This document shows, one piece after another, positions 7,947 to 25,518 of a DNA stretch of 64,000 bases; the stretch's first letter is position 1, and every line of letters begins with the position of its first letter. The notes under the pieces are model-generated. The model saw only the letters and a program-made list of their open reading frames with translations, did not search any database and was not told the DNA's origin. This DNA comes from Naumannella halotolerans (lineage in GTDB: Bacteria > Actinomycetota > Actinomycetes > Propionibacteriales > Propionibacteriaceae), in the NCBI RefSeq assembly GCF_004364645.1, contig NZ_SOAW01000001.1, positions 1,860,001 through 1,924,000 of the forward strand, written 5' to 3'. The position numbers and the translations under genes were made by a program.

Positions 7947-9353
7947 TCAGGCGGGCTGATCTCGTACCGCGCCGATCCGCAGGGCGAACGGGATCGCCAG
8001 CATCGCGACCACGGCCATGGCCGTGATCACGGTGCCGAAACCGAGTTGGGAATCAGCAGCGATCTGCAGACTGCTGAAGATCGATCCGGCGATACCGGCG
8101 AACACCGCGTACCCGATGCCCTCGCCGATCTGCAACGACGCCGCGTTGCGGCCCTGCTGGTTGTCCGGGGACAGCGCCATCACGACCAGGCTGGTGGTGG
8201 CCACCGCCAGCCCCATGCCCAGGCCACCGATGGACCAGGCGATCGCGAGCACCCAGCCGGGAACCCAGGACAGCCAGGCCGGAACGGCTGCCAAGGCGAT
8301 CGCGGTGAAGACCGCCAGCACCCCGGCCAGGATCAACCGGTCGCGCCGGACCCGGACCCACGACTGCGACTGCAACCAGGCACCGATGGCCCAGCCCACC
8401 GCGCCGATGCTGAGCACCGCTCCGGCCAGGCTGAGGCCCATCCCCCGGGTCTGTACCAGCATCAGCGGTACGAACGCCTCGGCCCCGAAGAAGGCGCCGG
8501 GAAACAGCAACCGGCACCAGACCGTGGAGGACAATCCGCGCCGGAAACGGAGGAATCCGGCCGGCATCATCGGCGGCAGCGCGATCAGCAGGGCGACCAC
8601 ACCGATCAGCGCTGCGGCCACCGCCCACCAGAGCCGGTCGGTGGCGAACAACTGACCCGCCGCCTGCAGACCGATCGCGCCGACCGCAGCGACCACGGGT
8701 GCCCACAAGGGCACCGGATCGGTGTCGGCGGACGACCCGTCGAGCAGGCCGTCCCGGCTGACCCCGGAGACGATCGGCCGCACCAGCAGACCAGCGGCGA
8801 GCACCAGCGGGACCACGCTGAAGAAGACCCAGTGCCAGGAGGCGCGTTCGGCCAGCGCGCCGGCGATCGGCGGGCCGACGAAGGCCGGCACCACCCAGGC
8901 CGCCGACATCCAGGCCATCACCTGCGCGCGGTGGGTGGGGTTGAAGATCCGGGCGACGATCACCGTCAGGCTGACGAACATCGCACCCGCACCGAGGCCC
9001 TGGATCCACCGGCCGAGCAGCAGCTGCGGCCAGCTGAACGCGAACCCGGCGACCAGCAGTCCGACCACGAAGACCGCCATCCCGGCATACATCGGCCGGA
9101 CCGGGCCGATCCGGTCGGCCAGCCGGCCGGCGACCGCGGTACCCATCAACTGGCCGATGATGAACAAGGTGAACGACCAGGCATAGGCGCCCAGTCCACC
9201 GAGGTCCTCGGCCGCGCGCGGCATCGCGGTGGCGACCGCGATGTTCTCGAAGGCGGCGCCGAAGACACCGATGACGATGCCGCCGACCATCGCCGGGGTG
9301 GGAACGACGGTGCGCCGCTGGTCGGCGGCGGCGCTGGGGGAACTCTCCGTCAT
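7947..9353 (-). CDS. MFS transporter, DHA2-like drug/metabolite exporter
   Basis: This 468-aa polytopic protein has about 12-14 hydrophobic helices. The family motif A between TM2 and TM3 is recognisable as GRLADRIGPVRPMY, and an Arg-containing TM4 (LLLGRWIQGLGAG) matches motif B. The motif C region reads WVVPAFVGPPIAGALAERASW, characteristic of drug:H+ antiporters. It starts at ATG 9353, divergent from the DUF3039 gene with 62 bp between starts. It is followed on the same strand by a TetR regulator. It probably exports a small hydrophobic compound; the substrate cannot be inferred. Confidence 0.9.
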   Translation of the reverse strand: MTESSPSAAADQRRTVVPTPAMVGGIVIGVFGAAFENIAVATAMPRAAEDLGGLGAYAWSFTLFIIGQLMGTAVAGRLADRIGPVRPMYAGMAVFVVGLLVAGFAFSWPQLLLGRWIQGLGAGAMFVSLTVIVARIFNPTHRAQVMAWMSAAWVVPAFVGPPIAGALAERASWHWVFFSVVPLVLAAGLLVRPIVSGVSRDGLLDGSSADTDPVPLWAPVVAAVGAIGLQAAGQLFATDRLWWAVAAALIGVVALLIALPPMMPAGFLRFRRGLSSTVWCRLLFPGAFFGAEAFVPLMLVQTRGMGLSLAGAVLSIGAVGWAIGAWLQSQSWVRVRRDRLILAGVLAVFTAIALAAVPAWLSWVPGWVLAIAWSIGGLGMGLAVATTSLVVMALSPDNQQGRNAASLQIGEGIGYAVFAGIAGSIFSSLQIAADSQLGFGTVITAMAVVAMLAIPFALRIGAVRDQPA

Positions 9354-20969: not shown

Positions 20970-21233
20970 TCAGACGGCTCGCTTCTTCAGCTTGCGGCGT
21001 TCACGTTCGCTGAGACCGCCCCAGATGCCGAAGCGCTCGTCATTGGCCAGCGCGTACTCCAGGCACTCGCTGCGGACATCGCAGGAGAGACAGACCTTCT
21101 TCGCCTCTCGTGTGGAACCGCCCTTCTCGGGGAAGAAGGCCTCCGGATCGGTCTGCGCGCACAGGGCACGCTCCTGCCAACCCAGGATCCCCTCGTCATC
21201 CTCCGCGGGTTCACCCACGTGAAGCTCCAGCAT
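20970..21233 (-). CDS. whiB2: WhiB-family [4Fe-4S] transcription factor, WhiB2/WhmD-like
   Basis: This 87-aa protein has four cysteines for the Fe-S cluster (one in ALCAQTDPE, then VCLSCDVRSEC). The family motif GIWGGLSERERRKLKK is followed by a basic C-terminal DNA-binding tail ending KKRAV. The position upstream of a glycosyltransferase and opposite fbiA/cofD matches the whiB2 (Rv3260c) locus of mycobacteria, whose WhmD/WhiB2 product controls septation and cell division. Ribosome site AGGAGGAAAC precedes the ATG. A well-formed promoter lies 47-75 bp upstream of the start. The family is certain; WhiB2 orthology rests on synteny. Confidence 0.95.
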   Translation of the reverse strand: MLELHVGEPAEDDEGILGWQERALCAQTDPEAFFPEKGGSTREAKKVCLSCDVRSECLEYALANDERFGIWGGLSERERRKLKKRAV

Positions 21234-21279
21234 GTTTCCTCCTCGACCCGAACCGGCTCGAGCCCGGTTCCTGCCTGAA

Positions 21280-21308
21280 ATTACATGCCTGTAAGTCCAT
21301 TAAGTCAA
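21280..21308 (-). promoter_or_regulatory. whiB2 promoter: TTGACT, 17-bp spacer, TGTAAT
   Basis: On the minus strand, TTGACT (21303-21308) and TGTAAT (21280-21285) are separated by exactly 17 bp, a near-canonical sigma-70 (SigA/HrdB) layout, about 47 bp upstream of the whiB2 ATG. The -10 lies inside a palindrome TTACATGCCTGTAA (21281-21294; arms TTACA/TGTAA, spacer 4), suggesting a regulator site overlapping the promoter. This is one of the few AT-rich patches in the region. Confidence 0.7.
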
Positions 21309-21741
21309 GCGGTACGACAAGCTACGACCGCCGATCCTGCCGCAAACCTACTCGTGGGTACCCCCAGCGCGGTTCGAGATCGTCCTGCCGCCACCGGTGC
21401 CGACTCCGACCATCGCCGGCTGCCGCGGCGCTTCGTCGGACGGTCTGTTCGGCCGACCATCGGGCGATCCGTGCGGTGGCATGCAGCGGCGATGTCGGTC
21501 ACCCGGCCACCTCGGACCGGACCAACGCCCCATTCCTGCTCCGTTCGTTCGCTCGGCCGACCGGTCTGGGACGACCCGCCGGCTCGATGCACTCAGAGTA
21601 GGTCGGGGATCCTCGATCCGGCAGGCACGACACACCGGCGTTTTCCACAGGCGGGACATCCCGCGCCGCACCCGGTACGCCCCCGTCGCTCGCCGATCCG
21701 GAAAGTCGATCCCCGGAGTCGGCAGATGCCAAGATGGGAGC
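21309..21741. other. Non-coding stretch between the whiB2 promoter and cofD
   Basis: No convincing gene is seen in these ~430 bp. Frames that remain open have arginine/proline-rich translations typical of GC-rich non-coding DNA. It presumably holds the cofD promoter and the whiB2 upstream region. I see no tRNA, terminator or riboswitch here. Confidence 0.5.
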
Positions 21742-22764
21742 GTGGCACCAGTTCCCGAACCCTCTGCACCGCGATCCATCACCGTGCTGGCCGGCGGGGT
21801 CGGCGGATCCCGCTTCGTCCGCGGGGTGCGGCAGGCCTGGCCGGAGGCGTCGATCACGGTGATCGCCAACACCGCCGACGACATCACCCTGCACGGTCTG
21901 CGGATCTGCCCCGACATCGACACCATGCTCTACACCCTGGGCGGGGGAATCGACCCCGAGAAGGGCTGGGGCCGGCGCGAGGAGACCTGGTCGATCGCCG
22001 AGGAGTTCACTGCCTACGGCGCCGAGCCCCGGTGGTTCGGCCTGGGCGATCGGGACATCGCCACCCACCTCGTGCGCACCCAGCTGCTCGACAACGGCTA
22101 TTCGCTCAGCGAGGTGACCCAGGTGCTGGCAGACCGCTGGCTGGCCGAGCTGCCGGGGGTCCGGGTGCTGCCGATGACCGATGATCGGGTGGAGACCCAG
22201 GTGGTGATCACCGACCCCGACACCCCGGCCGGCCAGCGGGCGATCCACTTCCAGGAGTACTGGGTACGCCACCACGCCGAGCCCGAGGTACGCCAGATCG
22301 TGCAACTCGGGATCGAGGACGCCCGCCCGGGCCCGGGAGTGATCGAGGCGATCACCGACTCCGAGCTGGTACTGCTGGCACCGAGCAACCCGGTGGTCTC
22401 GATCGGTCCGATCCTGGCCGTGCCGGGCATCCGGGGCGCCATCGGTACCACCGAGGCAGCGGTCCTCGGCTTCTCCGGGATCCTCGGCGGCTCCCCGATC
22501 CTGGGGATGGCGCACAAGTTGTTGCCGGCGATCGGGGTGGAGGTGAGTGCAGCCGGTGTCGGCGCGCATTACGGGGCTCGGTCCAGGACCGGCATCCTGG
22601 ACGGCTGGTTGGTCGACACCGCCGATGCCGCCACGGTGGACGAACTGCGCGCGGTCGGCCTGCCCACCCTCGCCCATCCGCTGCTGATGACCGACCCGGA
22701 GCTGACCGCGCAGTTCGTCCGGGCCGGCGCCGACTTCGTCACCCGGAACCGGCCGGCCGCCTGA
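21742..22764 (+). CDS. cofD: 2-phospho-L-lactate transferase family (CofD/FbiA), coenzyme F420 biosynthesis
   Basis: This 340-aa protein transfers the phospho-lactyl or phosphoenolpyruvyl moiety from a GDP-activated intermediate to the deazaflavin Fo, giving (dehydro-)F420-0. Signatures include the N-terminal ITVLAGGVGGSRFVRG nucleotide loop, ITVIANTADDITLHGLRICPDIDTM, GLGDRDIATHLVR and LLAPSNPVVSIGPIL, all typical of the family. Start GTG 21742 is chosen because the family begins right at the LAGGVGG strand; longer in-frame starts would add ~115 non-homologous residues. Its stop overlaps the cofE start by one base (TGATG), so the two are coupled. In mycobacteria this pair is fbiA-fbiB. Confidence 0.94.
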   Translation: MAPVPEPSAPRSITVLAGGVGGSRFVRGVRQAWPEASITVIANTADDITLHGLRICPDIDTMLYTLGGGIDPEKGWGRREETWSIAEEFTAYGAEPRWFGLGDRDIATHLVRTQLLDNGYSLSEVTQVLADRWLAELPGVRVLPMTDDRVETQVVITDPDTPAGQRAIHFQEYWVRHHAEPEVRQIVQLGIEDARPGPGVIEAITDSELVLLAPSNPVVSIGPILAVPGIRGAIGTTEAAVLGFSGILGGSPILGMAHKLLPAIGVEVSAAGVGAHYGARSRTGILDGWLVDTADAATVDELRAVGLPTLAHPLLMTDPELTAQFVRAGADFVTRNRPAA

Positions 22765-23618
22765 TGATCGAGATCTTCGCCCCCGAGGGGATCGGCGAGA
22801 TCTCCGCCGGTGATCAACTCGCACCGATCCTGCTCCGGGCACTGGCCGATGCCGGTGGCCTGCGCGACGGGGACATCGTCTGCGTCACCTCCAAGATCAT
22901 CAGCAAATCCGAGGGACGCTTCCGCGAGTCCTCCCAGGCGGCCCGGGCACTGACCGAGGAGACCGTCGAGACCGTCGCCCGGCGGGATCGGGTACGGATC
23001 GTCCGCAACCGCCAGGGCATCGTGCAGGCCGCCGCCGGGATCGACAGCTCCAATGTGGCCGCCGGTTCCATCCTGTTGCTGCCGATCGACCCCGACGCCA
23101 GTGCGGCGCGATTGCGCGCAGAACTCCTGGCCGGCTCCGGGCGCCGGGTCGGGGTGTTGATCACCGACACCGCCGGCAGGGCCTGGCGGATCGGCCAGAC
23201 CGATCAGGCGATCGGCGCCAGCGGGGTGCGTACCAGCCTGGGTTATGCCGGGCAGACCGACGATTACGGCAACGACCTGGTGGTGACCCAGATGGCGGTG
23301 GCCGACGAACTCGCCGCCGCCGCGGATCTGGTGAAGGGCAAGCTTCGCCAATGTCCGGTGGCCGTCATCCGTGGCCTGCCCGAGCTGGTCGTCGACGCCG
23401 AGGAACCGGCCGCACAACTGCAGCGGGACCAGGCTTCGGACATGTTCGCCCGGGGCACCCGGGAGGCCGTGCTGTGGGCGCTGCTGGATGCCTGGGACCG
23501 GACCGCGGACTACCCCCGGCTGGTCGAGCTCGACGGCGAGGAGCTGATCGACTCGACCCTGGCAGTGCTCGACGGCGAGGAATCCACCCTGCGCCGGATC
23601 CTGGCGACCATCGCCTGA
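22764..23618 (+). CDS. cofE: F420-0:gamma-glutamyl ligase (CofE), without the FbiB reductase domain
   Basis: This 284-aa protein adds glutamate residues to F420-0. The signatures are at the normal places: N-terminal EIFAPEGIGEISAGDQL, GDIVCVTSKIISKSEGR, the GRRVGVLITDTAGRAWRIGQ core and GYAGQTDDYGNDLVVTQ. It ends soon after, with an extra ~35 residues past the last CofE element. Mycobacterial FbiB is ~450 aa and carries a C-terminal FMN-dependent nitroreductase-like domain that reduces dehydro-F420-0; nothing like it follows here or elsewhere in the window. It is coupled to cofD (1-bp overlap) and convergent with manC. Confidence 0.94.
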   Translation: MIEIFAPEGIGEISAGDQLAPILLRALADAGGLRDGDIVCVTSKIISKSEGRFRESSQAARALTEETVETVARRDRVRIVRNRQGIVQAAAGIDSSNVAAGSILLLPIDPDASAARLRAELLAGSGRRVGVLITDTAGRAWRIGQTDQAIGASGVRTSLGYAGQTDDYGNDLVVTQMAVADELAAAADLVKGKLRQCPVAVIRGLPELVVDAEEPAAQLQRDQASDMFARGTREAVLWALLDAWDRTADYPRLVELDGEELIDSTLAVLDGEESTLRRILATIA

Positions 23619-23633
23619 TCGGCGGGGCGGACC

Positions 23634-24710
23634 TCAGGCGAACTGCGAGGCCCGGGCCTCCACCTGTGCGACCAGATCCTTGATCCGCTCCGACTCCGAG
23701 GCCGGACAGACCAGCAGGGCGTCACCGCTGTGCACCACGACCACGTCGGAGAGCCCGAAGACGGCGATCAGCGACTCGTCAGCGGCCCGGTTGATCACCA
23801 CGTTGTCATGGGCATCGACCAGCAGCGCCCGGCCGTCGACACTGTTGCCCTGGTCGTCGCTCGGCAGGTGTTCGGCCAGCGCCGAGTACCCGCCCACGTC
23901 CTGCCAGGTCACCGGCAGCGGCACCGCCACCACATGCGCGCTGCCGCGGCCGCCGGCGACCGGCTCCATCACTGCGTAGTCGACGCTGATCTTCGGCAGC
24001 TTCCGGAACAGTTCCTCCAGCAGTTCGGGCTGGGCGGCGATCCTGGTGACCAATTGATGACAGTCGGGAACCAGCCGCTGCAGTTGGTCCAGCAGGGTCT
24101 GCGCGCGCCAGACGAACATCCCCGAGTTCCACCAGTAGTCGCCGGTGGCCAGGTACCGCTTGGCAGTCGGCAGGTCCGGCTTCTCCCGGAAGCCGGTGAC
24201 GGCGTACACACCGGGGACCTCCCCCACCTCCTCGCCGCGCTTGAGGTAGCCGTACCCGGTGTGCGGTGAGGTCGGGACGACCCCGAAGGTGACCATCGCC
24301 GAAGGATCGGTCTCGGCTGCCTCGAAGGCCGTCGCCAGGGCCTGCTGGAAGACCTCCACCGGTTGCATCACCTGATCGGCGGTGACCATCGCCACCACGG
24401 CGTCGGGGTCCGCGTGGGCCAGGACGGCCGCCGGCCAGGCGACCGCGTTCAACGAGTCGCGCCCCTCGGGCTCACCGAGGATCTGGTCCTCACCGAGCTC
24501 GGGGATCTCCTTGCGTACCTCCTGCTGGTACTTCGCGCCGGTGCAGACCAGGATGTGCTCATCGGGCACGGTGCCGCGGACCCGCTCGTAGGCCAGTCGC
24601 AGGAGTGAGGAGTCACCGATCAGGCGCAGCAACTGTTTGGGAGTCCCCTGCCGCGACAGCGGCCACAGACGCTTTCCCGAACCTCCGGCCATGATCACCA
24701 CATAACGCAT
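23634..24710 (-). CDS. manC: Mannose-1-phosphate guanylyltransferase
   Basis: This 358-aa protein makes GDP-mannose from mannose-1-phosphate and GTP, the donor (with ManB upstream in the pathway) for mannosylated envelope components. The nucleotidyltransferase signature VVIMAGGSGKRLWPLSR is at the N-terminus (residues ~4-20). Further elements are GDSSLLRLAYERV, VVAMVTADQVM and GYGYLKRGEEVG, then EKPDLPTAKRYL and the metal-binding WNSGMFVWRA. The start is ATG 24710 (MRYVVIMAGG); a longer in-frame extension runs over the divergent TIGR03089 gene and is rejected. It is a single-domain enzyme, without the fused isomerase domain seen in some bacteria. Confidence 0.95.
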   Translation of the reverse strand: MRYVVIMAGGSGKRLWPLSRQGTPKQLLRLIGDSSLLRLAYERVRGTVPDEHILVCTGAKYQQEVRKEIPELGEDQILGEPEGRDSLNAVAWPAAVLAHADPDAVVAMVTADQVMQPVEVFQQALATAFEAAETDPSAMVTFGVVPTSPHTGYGYLKRGEEVGEVPGVYAVTGFREKPDLPTAKRYLATGDYWWNSGMFVWRAQTLLDQLQRLVPDCHQLVTRIAAQPELLEELFRKLPKISVDYAVMEPVAGGRGSAHVVAVPLPVTWQDVGGYSALAEHLPSDDQGNSVDGRALLVDAHDNVVINRAADESLIAVFGLSDVVVVHSGDALLVCPASESERIKDLVAQVEARASQFA

Positions 24711-24813
24711 GGTCGCCAGCGTAGGGCAGTGCCGGAGCCGGTAGGTACAAACGCTTCGGCAGCGGCACGAATTGCCGCCGTCGCACCCACGCCCGGCCCC
24801 GTAGGCTGGCCGG

Positions 24814-25518
24814 GTGCCCACACCTGTCGATCTGCTCGCCGAGCGTGTCCGCCACGACGGTGCCCGACCGTTGTTGACCCAGTACCGCGACGGTGCCCGC
24901 ACCGAGCTGTCCGCAGCCAGCTTCGCCAACTGGGTGGACAAGACCGTGAACTGGCTGGACGAGGAGGACCTGACCGATCTCGACGGTACGGGCGAGTCCC
25001 TGCTGGCCATCGAACTGGCACTCACCGAACCTGCCCACTGGATGACCTTCGTCTGGTGGATGGCCGCCTGGCAGGCAGGTCTGCCGGTCACCCCGGTACC
25101 GGCTGCCGAGGCGGCGGTACGGGTCGGCGGGCCGACCATCACCGCCGGCGGGGCGGAGTTCGTGATCGGGTGCTCACTGCATCCGTTCGCCATGCCCGGC
25201 CCGGTGGCGCCGGGGGTGCTCGACTTCAGCGACGAGGTACGTCCGCAACCGGATGTGCATCAGGCCGCACCCGTCGACCCGGAGCGTCCCGCCTGGCTCG
25301 ACCGGCGCGGGGAGGTCACGGTCGCCGGGTTGCTGGACGACCTGACCCCCACCACCCGGGTGGGACTACTCACCACCCCGACCGATGCGTGGACGGCGCT
25401 GCGCCAGGGGTTGTTGAGCCCCCTGCTCGGCGGCGGGTCGGCGGTGTTGGTCAGCGGCACGGTGAGCGATGCCGAACTGGCAACGATCACTCGCTCCGAG
25501 GGCATCCGCAGCGACTGA
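24814..25518 (+). CDS. TIGR03089 family protein (actinobacterial, acyl-AMP-ligase-like)
   Basis: This 234-aa protein starts at GTG 24814 (PTPVDLLAERVRHDGARPLLTQY). It resembles the TIGR03089 family, actinobacterial proteins related to the N-terminal part of AMP-binding acyl-CoA synthetases but too short to have the full enzyme. The sequence has the ...GTRTELSxxSFANWVxKT-like start and a GLLTTPTDAWTALRQGLLSPLLGGGSAVLV end. No AMP-binding core motif or C-terminal domain is present, so catalysis is doubtful. It is divergent from manC (104 bp between starts). Confidence 0.8.
   Translation: MPTPVDLLAERVRHDGARPLLTQYRDGARTELSAASFANWVDKTVNWLDEEDLTDLDGTGESLLAIELALTEPAHWMTFVWWMAAWQAGLPVTPVPAAEAAVRVGGPTITAGGAEFVIGCSLHPFAMPGPVAPGVLDFSDEVRPQPDVHQAAPVDPERPAWLDRRGEVTVAGLLDDLTPTTRVGLLTTPTDAWTALRQGLLSPLLGGGSAVLVSGTVSDAELATITRSEGIRSD

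What the first reader, a model, noticed from the sequence alone, without database searches (positions are those of the whole stretch)
22764..23618. Stand-alone CofE without the FbiB reductase domain
In mycobacteria, FbiB fuses CofE to a nitroreductase-like domain that reduces dehydro-F420-0. Here the gene stops just after the CofE part, although cofD and whiB2 beside it keep the mycobacterial arrangement. Either a separate reductase exists elsewhere, or a different precursor is used (2-phospholactate rather than PEP), or dehydro-F420 accumulates.
Basis: partly seen in the sequence, partly recalled or inferred. Interest (0 to 1): 0.5.

Follow-up and report, generated by a model that had tools for sequence, protein, structure and literature searches.

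The report
F420 ligase lacking its reductase domain
The gene is a cofactor-F420 glutamate ligase without the reductase domain that is fused to it in mycobacteria; the same shortening recurs in many actinobacteria, usually together with a separate, unnamed flavin enzyme that may do the missing step.

Summary
Observation confirmed: 22764-23618 (+) encodes a 284-aa CofE; the CofE part ends near residue 237 and no nitroreductase (NTR) domain follows.

It is not peculiar to this genome: 0 of 27 cofE genomes in the family and 0 of 130 in the order have the fused domain. Across the class the FbiB domain ranges from intact (252-359 bits) through decayed (73-99) and vestigial (12-30) to undetectable.

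Best reading: a separate reductase. The genome has two NTR proteins over cut-off. One, P0001, between tatD and ksgA, tracks the truncation: order, 115 of 130 cofE genomes against 0 of 66 without; class, 56 of 76 shortened or decayed against 8 of 163 intact. In two Cellulomonas it lies tail-to-tail with cofC-cofD. It forms a clade apart from FbiB's domain.

Against: family f39 and genus g31 have shortened CofE but no P0001, and tree-corrected tests gave no significance. No activity was tested; a 2-phospholactate route stays possible.

A free-standing reductase (FbiE, Thermomicrobium) is already known; the decay series and this candidate appear new in the papers I could search.

The parts
22764..23618 (+). 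cofE, coenzyme F420-0:L-glutamate ligase, 284 aa, without fused NTR domain
22767..23474 (+). CofE domain, residues 2-237
   Evidence: NF009810 match to residue 237; TIGR01916 to residue 228
23475..23615 (+). C-terminal tail, residues 238-284, alignable among 26 family members; possible remnant of a lost NTR domain (inferred, no significant match)
21748..22764 (+). cofD/fbiA; exact start not determined (the ORF opens at 21397)
   Evidence: TIGR01819 368.4 bits
20970..21233 (-). WhiB-type regulator gene beside cofD
   Evidence: PF02467 97.5 bits
23634..24770 (-). mannose-1-phosphate guanylyltransferase-like gene, convergent with cofE (start approximate)
   Evidence: TIGR01479 273.7 bits, under its 372.95 cut-off

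Best explanation
The window gene adds the glutamate tail of F420 and nothing else. FbiD plus CofD would make dehydro-F420-0 from PEP; its enolpyruvyl double bond is then reduced not by a domain of the ligase but by a separate FMN-dependent NTR-superfamily protein, P0001, encoded about 1.8 Mb away (contig C1, 97066-97641) between tatD and ksgA. Shown: the gene content, the missing domain, the decay series of the FbiB domain in relatives, the tracking of P0001 with it, and a predicted NTR fold for a P0001 ortholog. Inferred: that P0001 is the reductase, that PEP is the precursor, and that this ligase descends from a fused FbiB.
For: F420 pathway present: CofE, CofD, CofC/FbiD 108.7 bits over its 105 cut-off, FbiC-type ORF of 834 aa with two radical-SAM stretches (its CofH half 262.7 bits, under the 374.1 cut-off). 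P0001 by family: 25 of 27 cofE genomes against 2 of 120. Order: 115 of 130 against 0 of 66. Class: 56 of 76 shortened or decayed, 8 of 163 intact, 1 of 50 without cofE, 0 of 7 fragments. Decay series. NTR gene tail-to-tail with cofC-cofD in Cellulomonas bogoriensis and C. aerilata and near them in Promicromonospora sukumoe, 3 of 80 loci, plus 1 of 20 unnamed loci. AlphaFold model of ortholog L169: mean pLDDT 91.9, matching FMN-binding NTRs. A stand-alone NTR-type reductase is reported for T. roseum (PMC8498797 sections 27 and 33).
Against: 20 of 76 shortened genomes lack P0001: all 10 sampled f39 genomes with cofE, six g31 genomes, G182, G287, G477, G485. G044, G134 and G366 have P0001 without a detected cofE. 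8 intact genomes have both. On a CofE tree only 2 well-supported independent pairs differ in the domain, too few for significance; of the 9-11 pairs that differ in P0001, the domain state is the same in 7-9. In 77 of 80 named loci no cofC, cofD, cofE or FbiC gene was found beside P0001. P0001 scores only 31.4 bits with the FbiB C-terminal model (cut-off 249.55).
Confidence: 0.6

Rival explanations
1. No reductase is needed: CofC-CofD uses 2-phospholactate, as proposed for archaea, and P0001 is some other F420-linked flavoenzyme.
For: In competitive assays the CofC enzymes tested used 2-PL best, except the 3-PG types (passages of PMC8764529). Grinter 2020 links absence of the domain to pathways without the reductive step (passages). 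f39, f45 and f46 genomes have cofE but no NTR that matches FbiB's domain at E up to 0.001.
Against: The same paper reports that a cognate CofD can shift the product towards PEP in M. smegmatis. Relatives still carry decaying reductase domains, which points to a dehydro-F420 ancestry. No bacterial source of 2-PL is known (passage of PMC6450877).
Confidence: 0.2
2. A different enzyme reduces dehydro-F420: the second NTR protein (P0002, contig C3) or one outside the NTR superfamily.
For: P0002 is an NTR over the Pfam cut-off. Shortened lineages without P0001 must do something else, if they need the step at all. In 4 of 7 f39 loci a luciferase-like oxidoreductase gene lies beside cofE.
Against: P0002 groups with general NTRs, away from FbiB's domain and from P0001.
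Confidence: 0.14
3. Dehydro-F420 accumulates and serves as the cofactor.
For: FbiB can glutamylate dehydro-F420-0 before reduction (PMC6450877 section 7), so a ligase alone could make dehydro-F420-n.
Against: Dehydro-F420 is described as less stable (section 27 of PMC8498797; passages of PMC8764529), and in M. smegmatis dehydro-F420-0 was detected only without fbiB (passages of PMC7253369).
Confidence: 0.04

Closest known systems
Mycobacterial FbiB (CofE-NTR fusion; PRK13294/NF009810)
   Same: N-terminal ligase domain (284 bits); next to cofD and a whiB gene
   Different: No C-terminal FMN-binding reductase domain; about 160 residues shorter than intact relatives, whose CofE-to-end lengths were 427-440
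FbiE of Thermomicrobium roseum, stand-alone dehydro-F420 reductase (review sections; original paper not held)
   Same: Proposed role and gene layout: single-domain CofE plus a free NTR-superfamily protein
Archaeal CofE
   Same: Single-domain ligase; 2g9i and 2phn matched at E about 4e-36
   Different: The window protein scores higher with the FbiB model (284 bits) than with NF009809 (165.8 bits) and has an extra tail

Membership tests
CofE (TIGR01916) | score over the curated cut-off | tested here: met
   218.2 against 180.65 bits
FbiB (NF009810) | CofE domain plus C-terminal NTR domain, over the curated cut-off | tested here: not met
   284 against 304 bits, positions 13-251 of 449; gene ends 16 bases before the next gene
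FbiB C-terminal reductase (TIGR03553), P0001 | score over the curated cut-off | tested here: not met
   31.4 against 249.55 bits; separate clade, though a sister relation is not rejected, AU p 0.342
NTR superfamily (PF00881), P0001 | score over cut-off and NTR fold | tested here: met
   79.2 against 23.5 bits; model of ortholog L169 matches NTR structures, best Z 20.7
FbiE (stand-alone dehydro-F420 reductase), P0001 | homology to T. roseum FbiE | not tested
   sequence and paper not held
FbiE (stand-alone dehydro-F420 reductase), P0001 | FMNH2-dependent reduction of dehydro-F420-0 | not testable with these tools
   needs an enzyme assay
FbiD/CofC (TIGR03552), genome copy P0003 | score over cut-off | tested here: met
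   108.7 against 105 bits
3-PG-type CofC, P0003 | Ser or Thr at the position of Mrhiz-CofC S162 (Mtb FbiD G163) | tested here: not met
   Glu in the alignment to 6bwg, position taken from passages
PEP-type FbiD against 2-PL-type CofC, P0003 | residues that choose PEP over 2-PL | tested here: inconclusive
   7 of 8 PEP-contact residues kept, but no residue is known from these papers to separate the two

The most novel reading that the evidence does not exclude
P0001 founds a second, unnamed type of dehydro-F420 reductase that displaced FbiB's own reductase domain in several actinobacterial lineages, with the old domain caught at each stage of decay: full-length but eroded, vestigial, gone. Family f39 would use yet another solution, such as the luciferase-like oxidoreductase beside its cofE or uptake of F420-0.
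Probability: 0.45. Interest if true: 0.65.

Novelty: new variant of a known kind. Interest (0 to 1): 0.45.

Why it matters
If P0001 is the reductase, F420 biosynthesis in this order and in members of nine further family codes (f9, f11, f17, f23, f33, f36, f40, f43, f47) runs through a protein that family models call only a nitroreductase, and pathway annotation that asks for full FbiB would miss it. It would offer a small free-standing reductase for making F420 in E. coli or yeast, and a clear case of a fused domain decaying after another gene took its job. Lineages with neither enzyme show where a third route should be sought.

Tried and rejected
Free FbiB C-terminal domain in the genome: nothing over cut-off, only weak matches of P0001 and P0002. 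Split or frameshifted domain right after the gene: no room. In-frame TGA in cofE of four g31 genomes looked like decay, but lies near model position 230 of 242, i.e. an early stop. Plasmid collection: one Streptomyces record with a P0001 relative, not followed. Shared neighbours of P0001 in the 80 named loci: no F420 gene by profile in 77 of 80; the 40 largest ORF clusters were judged by eye only. Ten neighbour ORFs of the Thermomicrobiales and Halobacteriales loci: no F420 biosynthesis family. FbiB's C-terminal structure (4xom) is not among the rows shown by either fold search; a profile search finds it at 54.4 bits behind 15 other NTR sequences. Promoter and terminator scan of 21000-24900: none found. 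Tree-corrected association: not significant. Papers: searches listed nothing on a P0001-type reductase or on decay of the FbiB domain; only listings and the passages named in the report were seen, and Braga 2020, Ney 2017 and Bashiri 2016 are not held, so earlier mention there is possible.

Full report
What is there. The gene is real: 22764-23618 on the plus strand, 284 codons, its first base being the last of cofD. It passes the CofE model (218.2 bits, cut-off 180.65) and leaves the 449-position FbiB model at position 251. A gene on the other strand ends 16 bases later, and a whiB-type gene lies on the far side of cofD. The genome (3.47 Mb, 6 contigs, given as 100% complete) has one CofE match, one CofC/FbiD over cut-off, an FbiC-type ORF of 834 aa (its CofH half scores 262.7 bits, under the 374.1 cut-off), and two NTR-superfamily proteins over the Pfam cut-off. 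It most likely makes F420.

Is the missing domain unusual? No. The FbiB model gave a CofE-type match in 27 of 147 family genomes, none past position 294, and in 130 of 196 order genomes, none past 346; the one at 346 runs through a stop codon, and its own tail scores 2.3 bits against the domain. In the class, 246 of 296 genomes had a match. By E-value I counted 163 intact FbiB, 76 shortened or decayed, and 7 fragments in otherwise fused families, left out of the two classes. Coordinates were checked in 36 chosen genomes, two of which (G134, G044) have no CofE match, and 41 proteins were aligned. Grinter 2020 also says that the domain is absent in most other F420 producers, and takes this as a pathway without the reductive step (passages of PMC7253369).

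A decay series. I built a profile from 31 intact C-terminal domains. These score 305-359 bits by construction; 19 intact domains not used in it score 252-310. Five f23 domains score 73-99: the His-His-Thr motif is gone and the middle is deleted. A sixth f23 protein has only 67 residues and no match. Eight f4 tails score 12-28 (E 9e-4 to 1e-8), f11 29.8 and f40 13.3. Tails of f1 (the window's family), f2, f3, short f17, f9, f33, f36, f39, f43, f45 and f46 give nothing significant. So the window ligase is plausibly a former FbiB, but this is inference from relatives: its own tail, which aligns within the family, does not match the domain.

The candidate. P0001 (C1:97066-97641, 192 aa) lies between tatD and ksgA. 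It passes no NCBIfam cut-off. Of 46 relatives (46 of the 80 loci), 45 match the FbiB C-terminal model, best E 6e-17, and all 46 match BluB; in the one member with cut-offs shown none is passed. Its presence follows the shortening: family 25 of 27 with cofE against 2 of 120 without; order 115 of 130 against 0 of 66; class 56 of 76 shortened or decayed, 8 of 163 intact, 1 of 50 without cofE, 0 of 7 fragments; five more intact genomes have only weak hits of 40-48 bits. The three samples overlap and used different E-value limits for P0001 (1e-15, 1e-10, 1e-8). Six of the eight intact genomes with P0001 were confirmed as intact by profile. Family f17 shows both states: three fused genomes without P0001 (273-278 bits) and seven of short type with it, two of them aligned.

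Limits. Fisher values (1e-17 to 6e-38 for the four large tables) ignore kinship. On a tree of 89 CofE domains the domain state changes at least 9 times and P0001 at least 17 times. Only 2 well-supported independent pairs differ in the domain; they mostly run the expected way, too few to test. Of 9 (quick tree) or 11 (careful tree) pairs that differ in P0001, the domain is the same in both members in about 7 to 9. So the association is strong by count but not shown to be repeated coevolution. Counter-examples among the 76: ten f39 genomes, six of g31, and G182, G287, G477, G485. G044, G134 and G366 have P0001 without a detected cofE. Within 8 kb of cofE in seven f39 loci, one f45, one f46 and three g31 loci, no FbiB-type domain or P0001 relative was found; g31 genomes do hold other, weakly matching NTRs.

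Neighbourhood. Three of 80 named loci have cofC-cofD within 5 kb of the NTR gene: Cellulomonas bogoriensis and C. aerilata, tail-to-tail with cofC, and Promicromonospora sukumoe; cofC and cofD pass their cut-offs. One of 20 unnamed loci shows it too (L326). A rough chance estimate for three of 80 is 0.001, but two are one genus.

Fold and kinship. The model of ortholog L169 has mean pLDDT 91.9; its best solved matches are uncharacterised NTRs such as 4dn2 (Z 20.7, rmsd 2.5 over 174 residues). In a tree of 62 NTR domains the 20 P0001-type rows form one clade (support 99), and the FbiB domains with the decayed ones another (92); a tree with the two held together is not rejected (AU p 0.342). P0001 relatives also occur in a Thermomicrobiales and a Halobacteriales MAG.

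Precursor. FbiD keeps K17, L92, D116, T148, S166, D188 and D190 of the M. tuberculosis enzyme and has Glu at G163, where Ser marks 3-PG users (one search read). This speaks against 3PG-F420 but cannot separate PEP from 2-PL; the authors say that CofC assays cannot either (passages of PMC8764529).

Verdict. A free-standing NTR-type reductase is a known solution (FbiE; PMC8498797 sections 27 and 33). What appears new is a specific unnamed NTR family as its likely form here, and the visible decay of the FbiB domain. Names for family codes (f1 Propionibacteriaceae, f3 Nocardioidaceae, f23 Micromonosporaceae) are my inference; the tools do not link codes to names.

Noticed in passing
L356 (cofE 7949-8746), L358, L359, L362 (unnamed family f39): In 4 of 7 f39 loci a luciferase-like oxidoreductase gene (best NCBIfam model TIGR03885 in the three scanned, under its cut-off; over the cut-off of TIGR03557) lies beside cofE; in three the order is cofE, this gene, cofC, fgd. 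f39 has neither FbiB's domain nor P0001, so this is a candidate for another route.
   Followed up: partly
L358:2944-4167: A putative F420-0 ABC transporter permease (TIGR03869, 465.7 bits, over cut-off) near cofD, cofC and cofE in one f39 genome suggests F420-0 uptake.
   Followed up: no
L075, L077, L275, L312 (genus g31): CofE of some g31 species groups with f39 and f47 in the CofE tree while others (L276, L277) group with the rest of the order, which suggests horizontal replacement.
   Followed up: no
L362 (G383) and G537:C5:177620-181177: Two cofE copies within about 3 kb in two f39 genomes.
   Followed up: no
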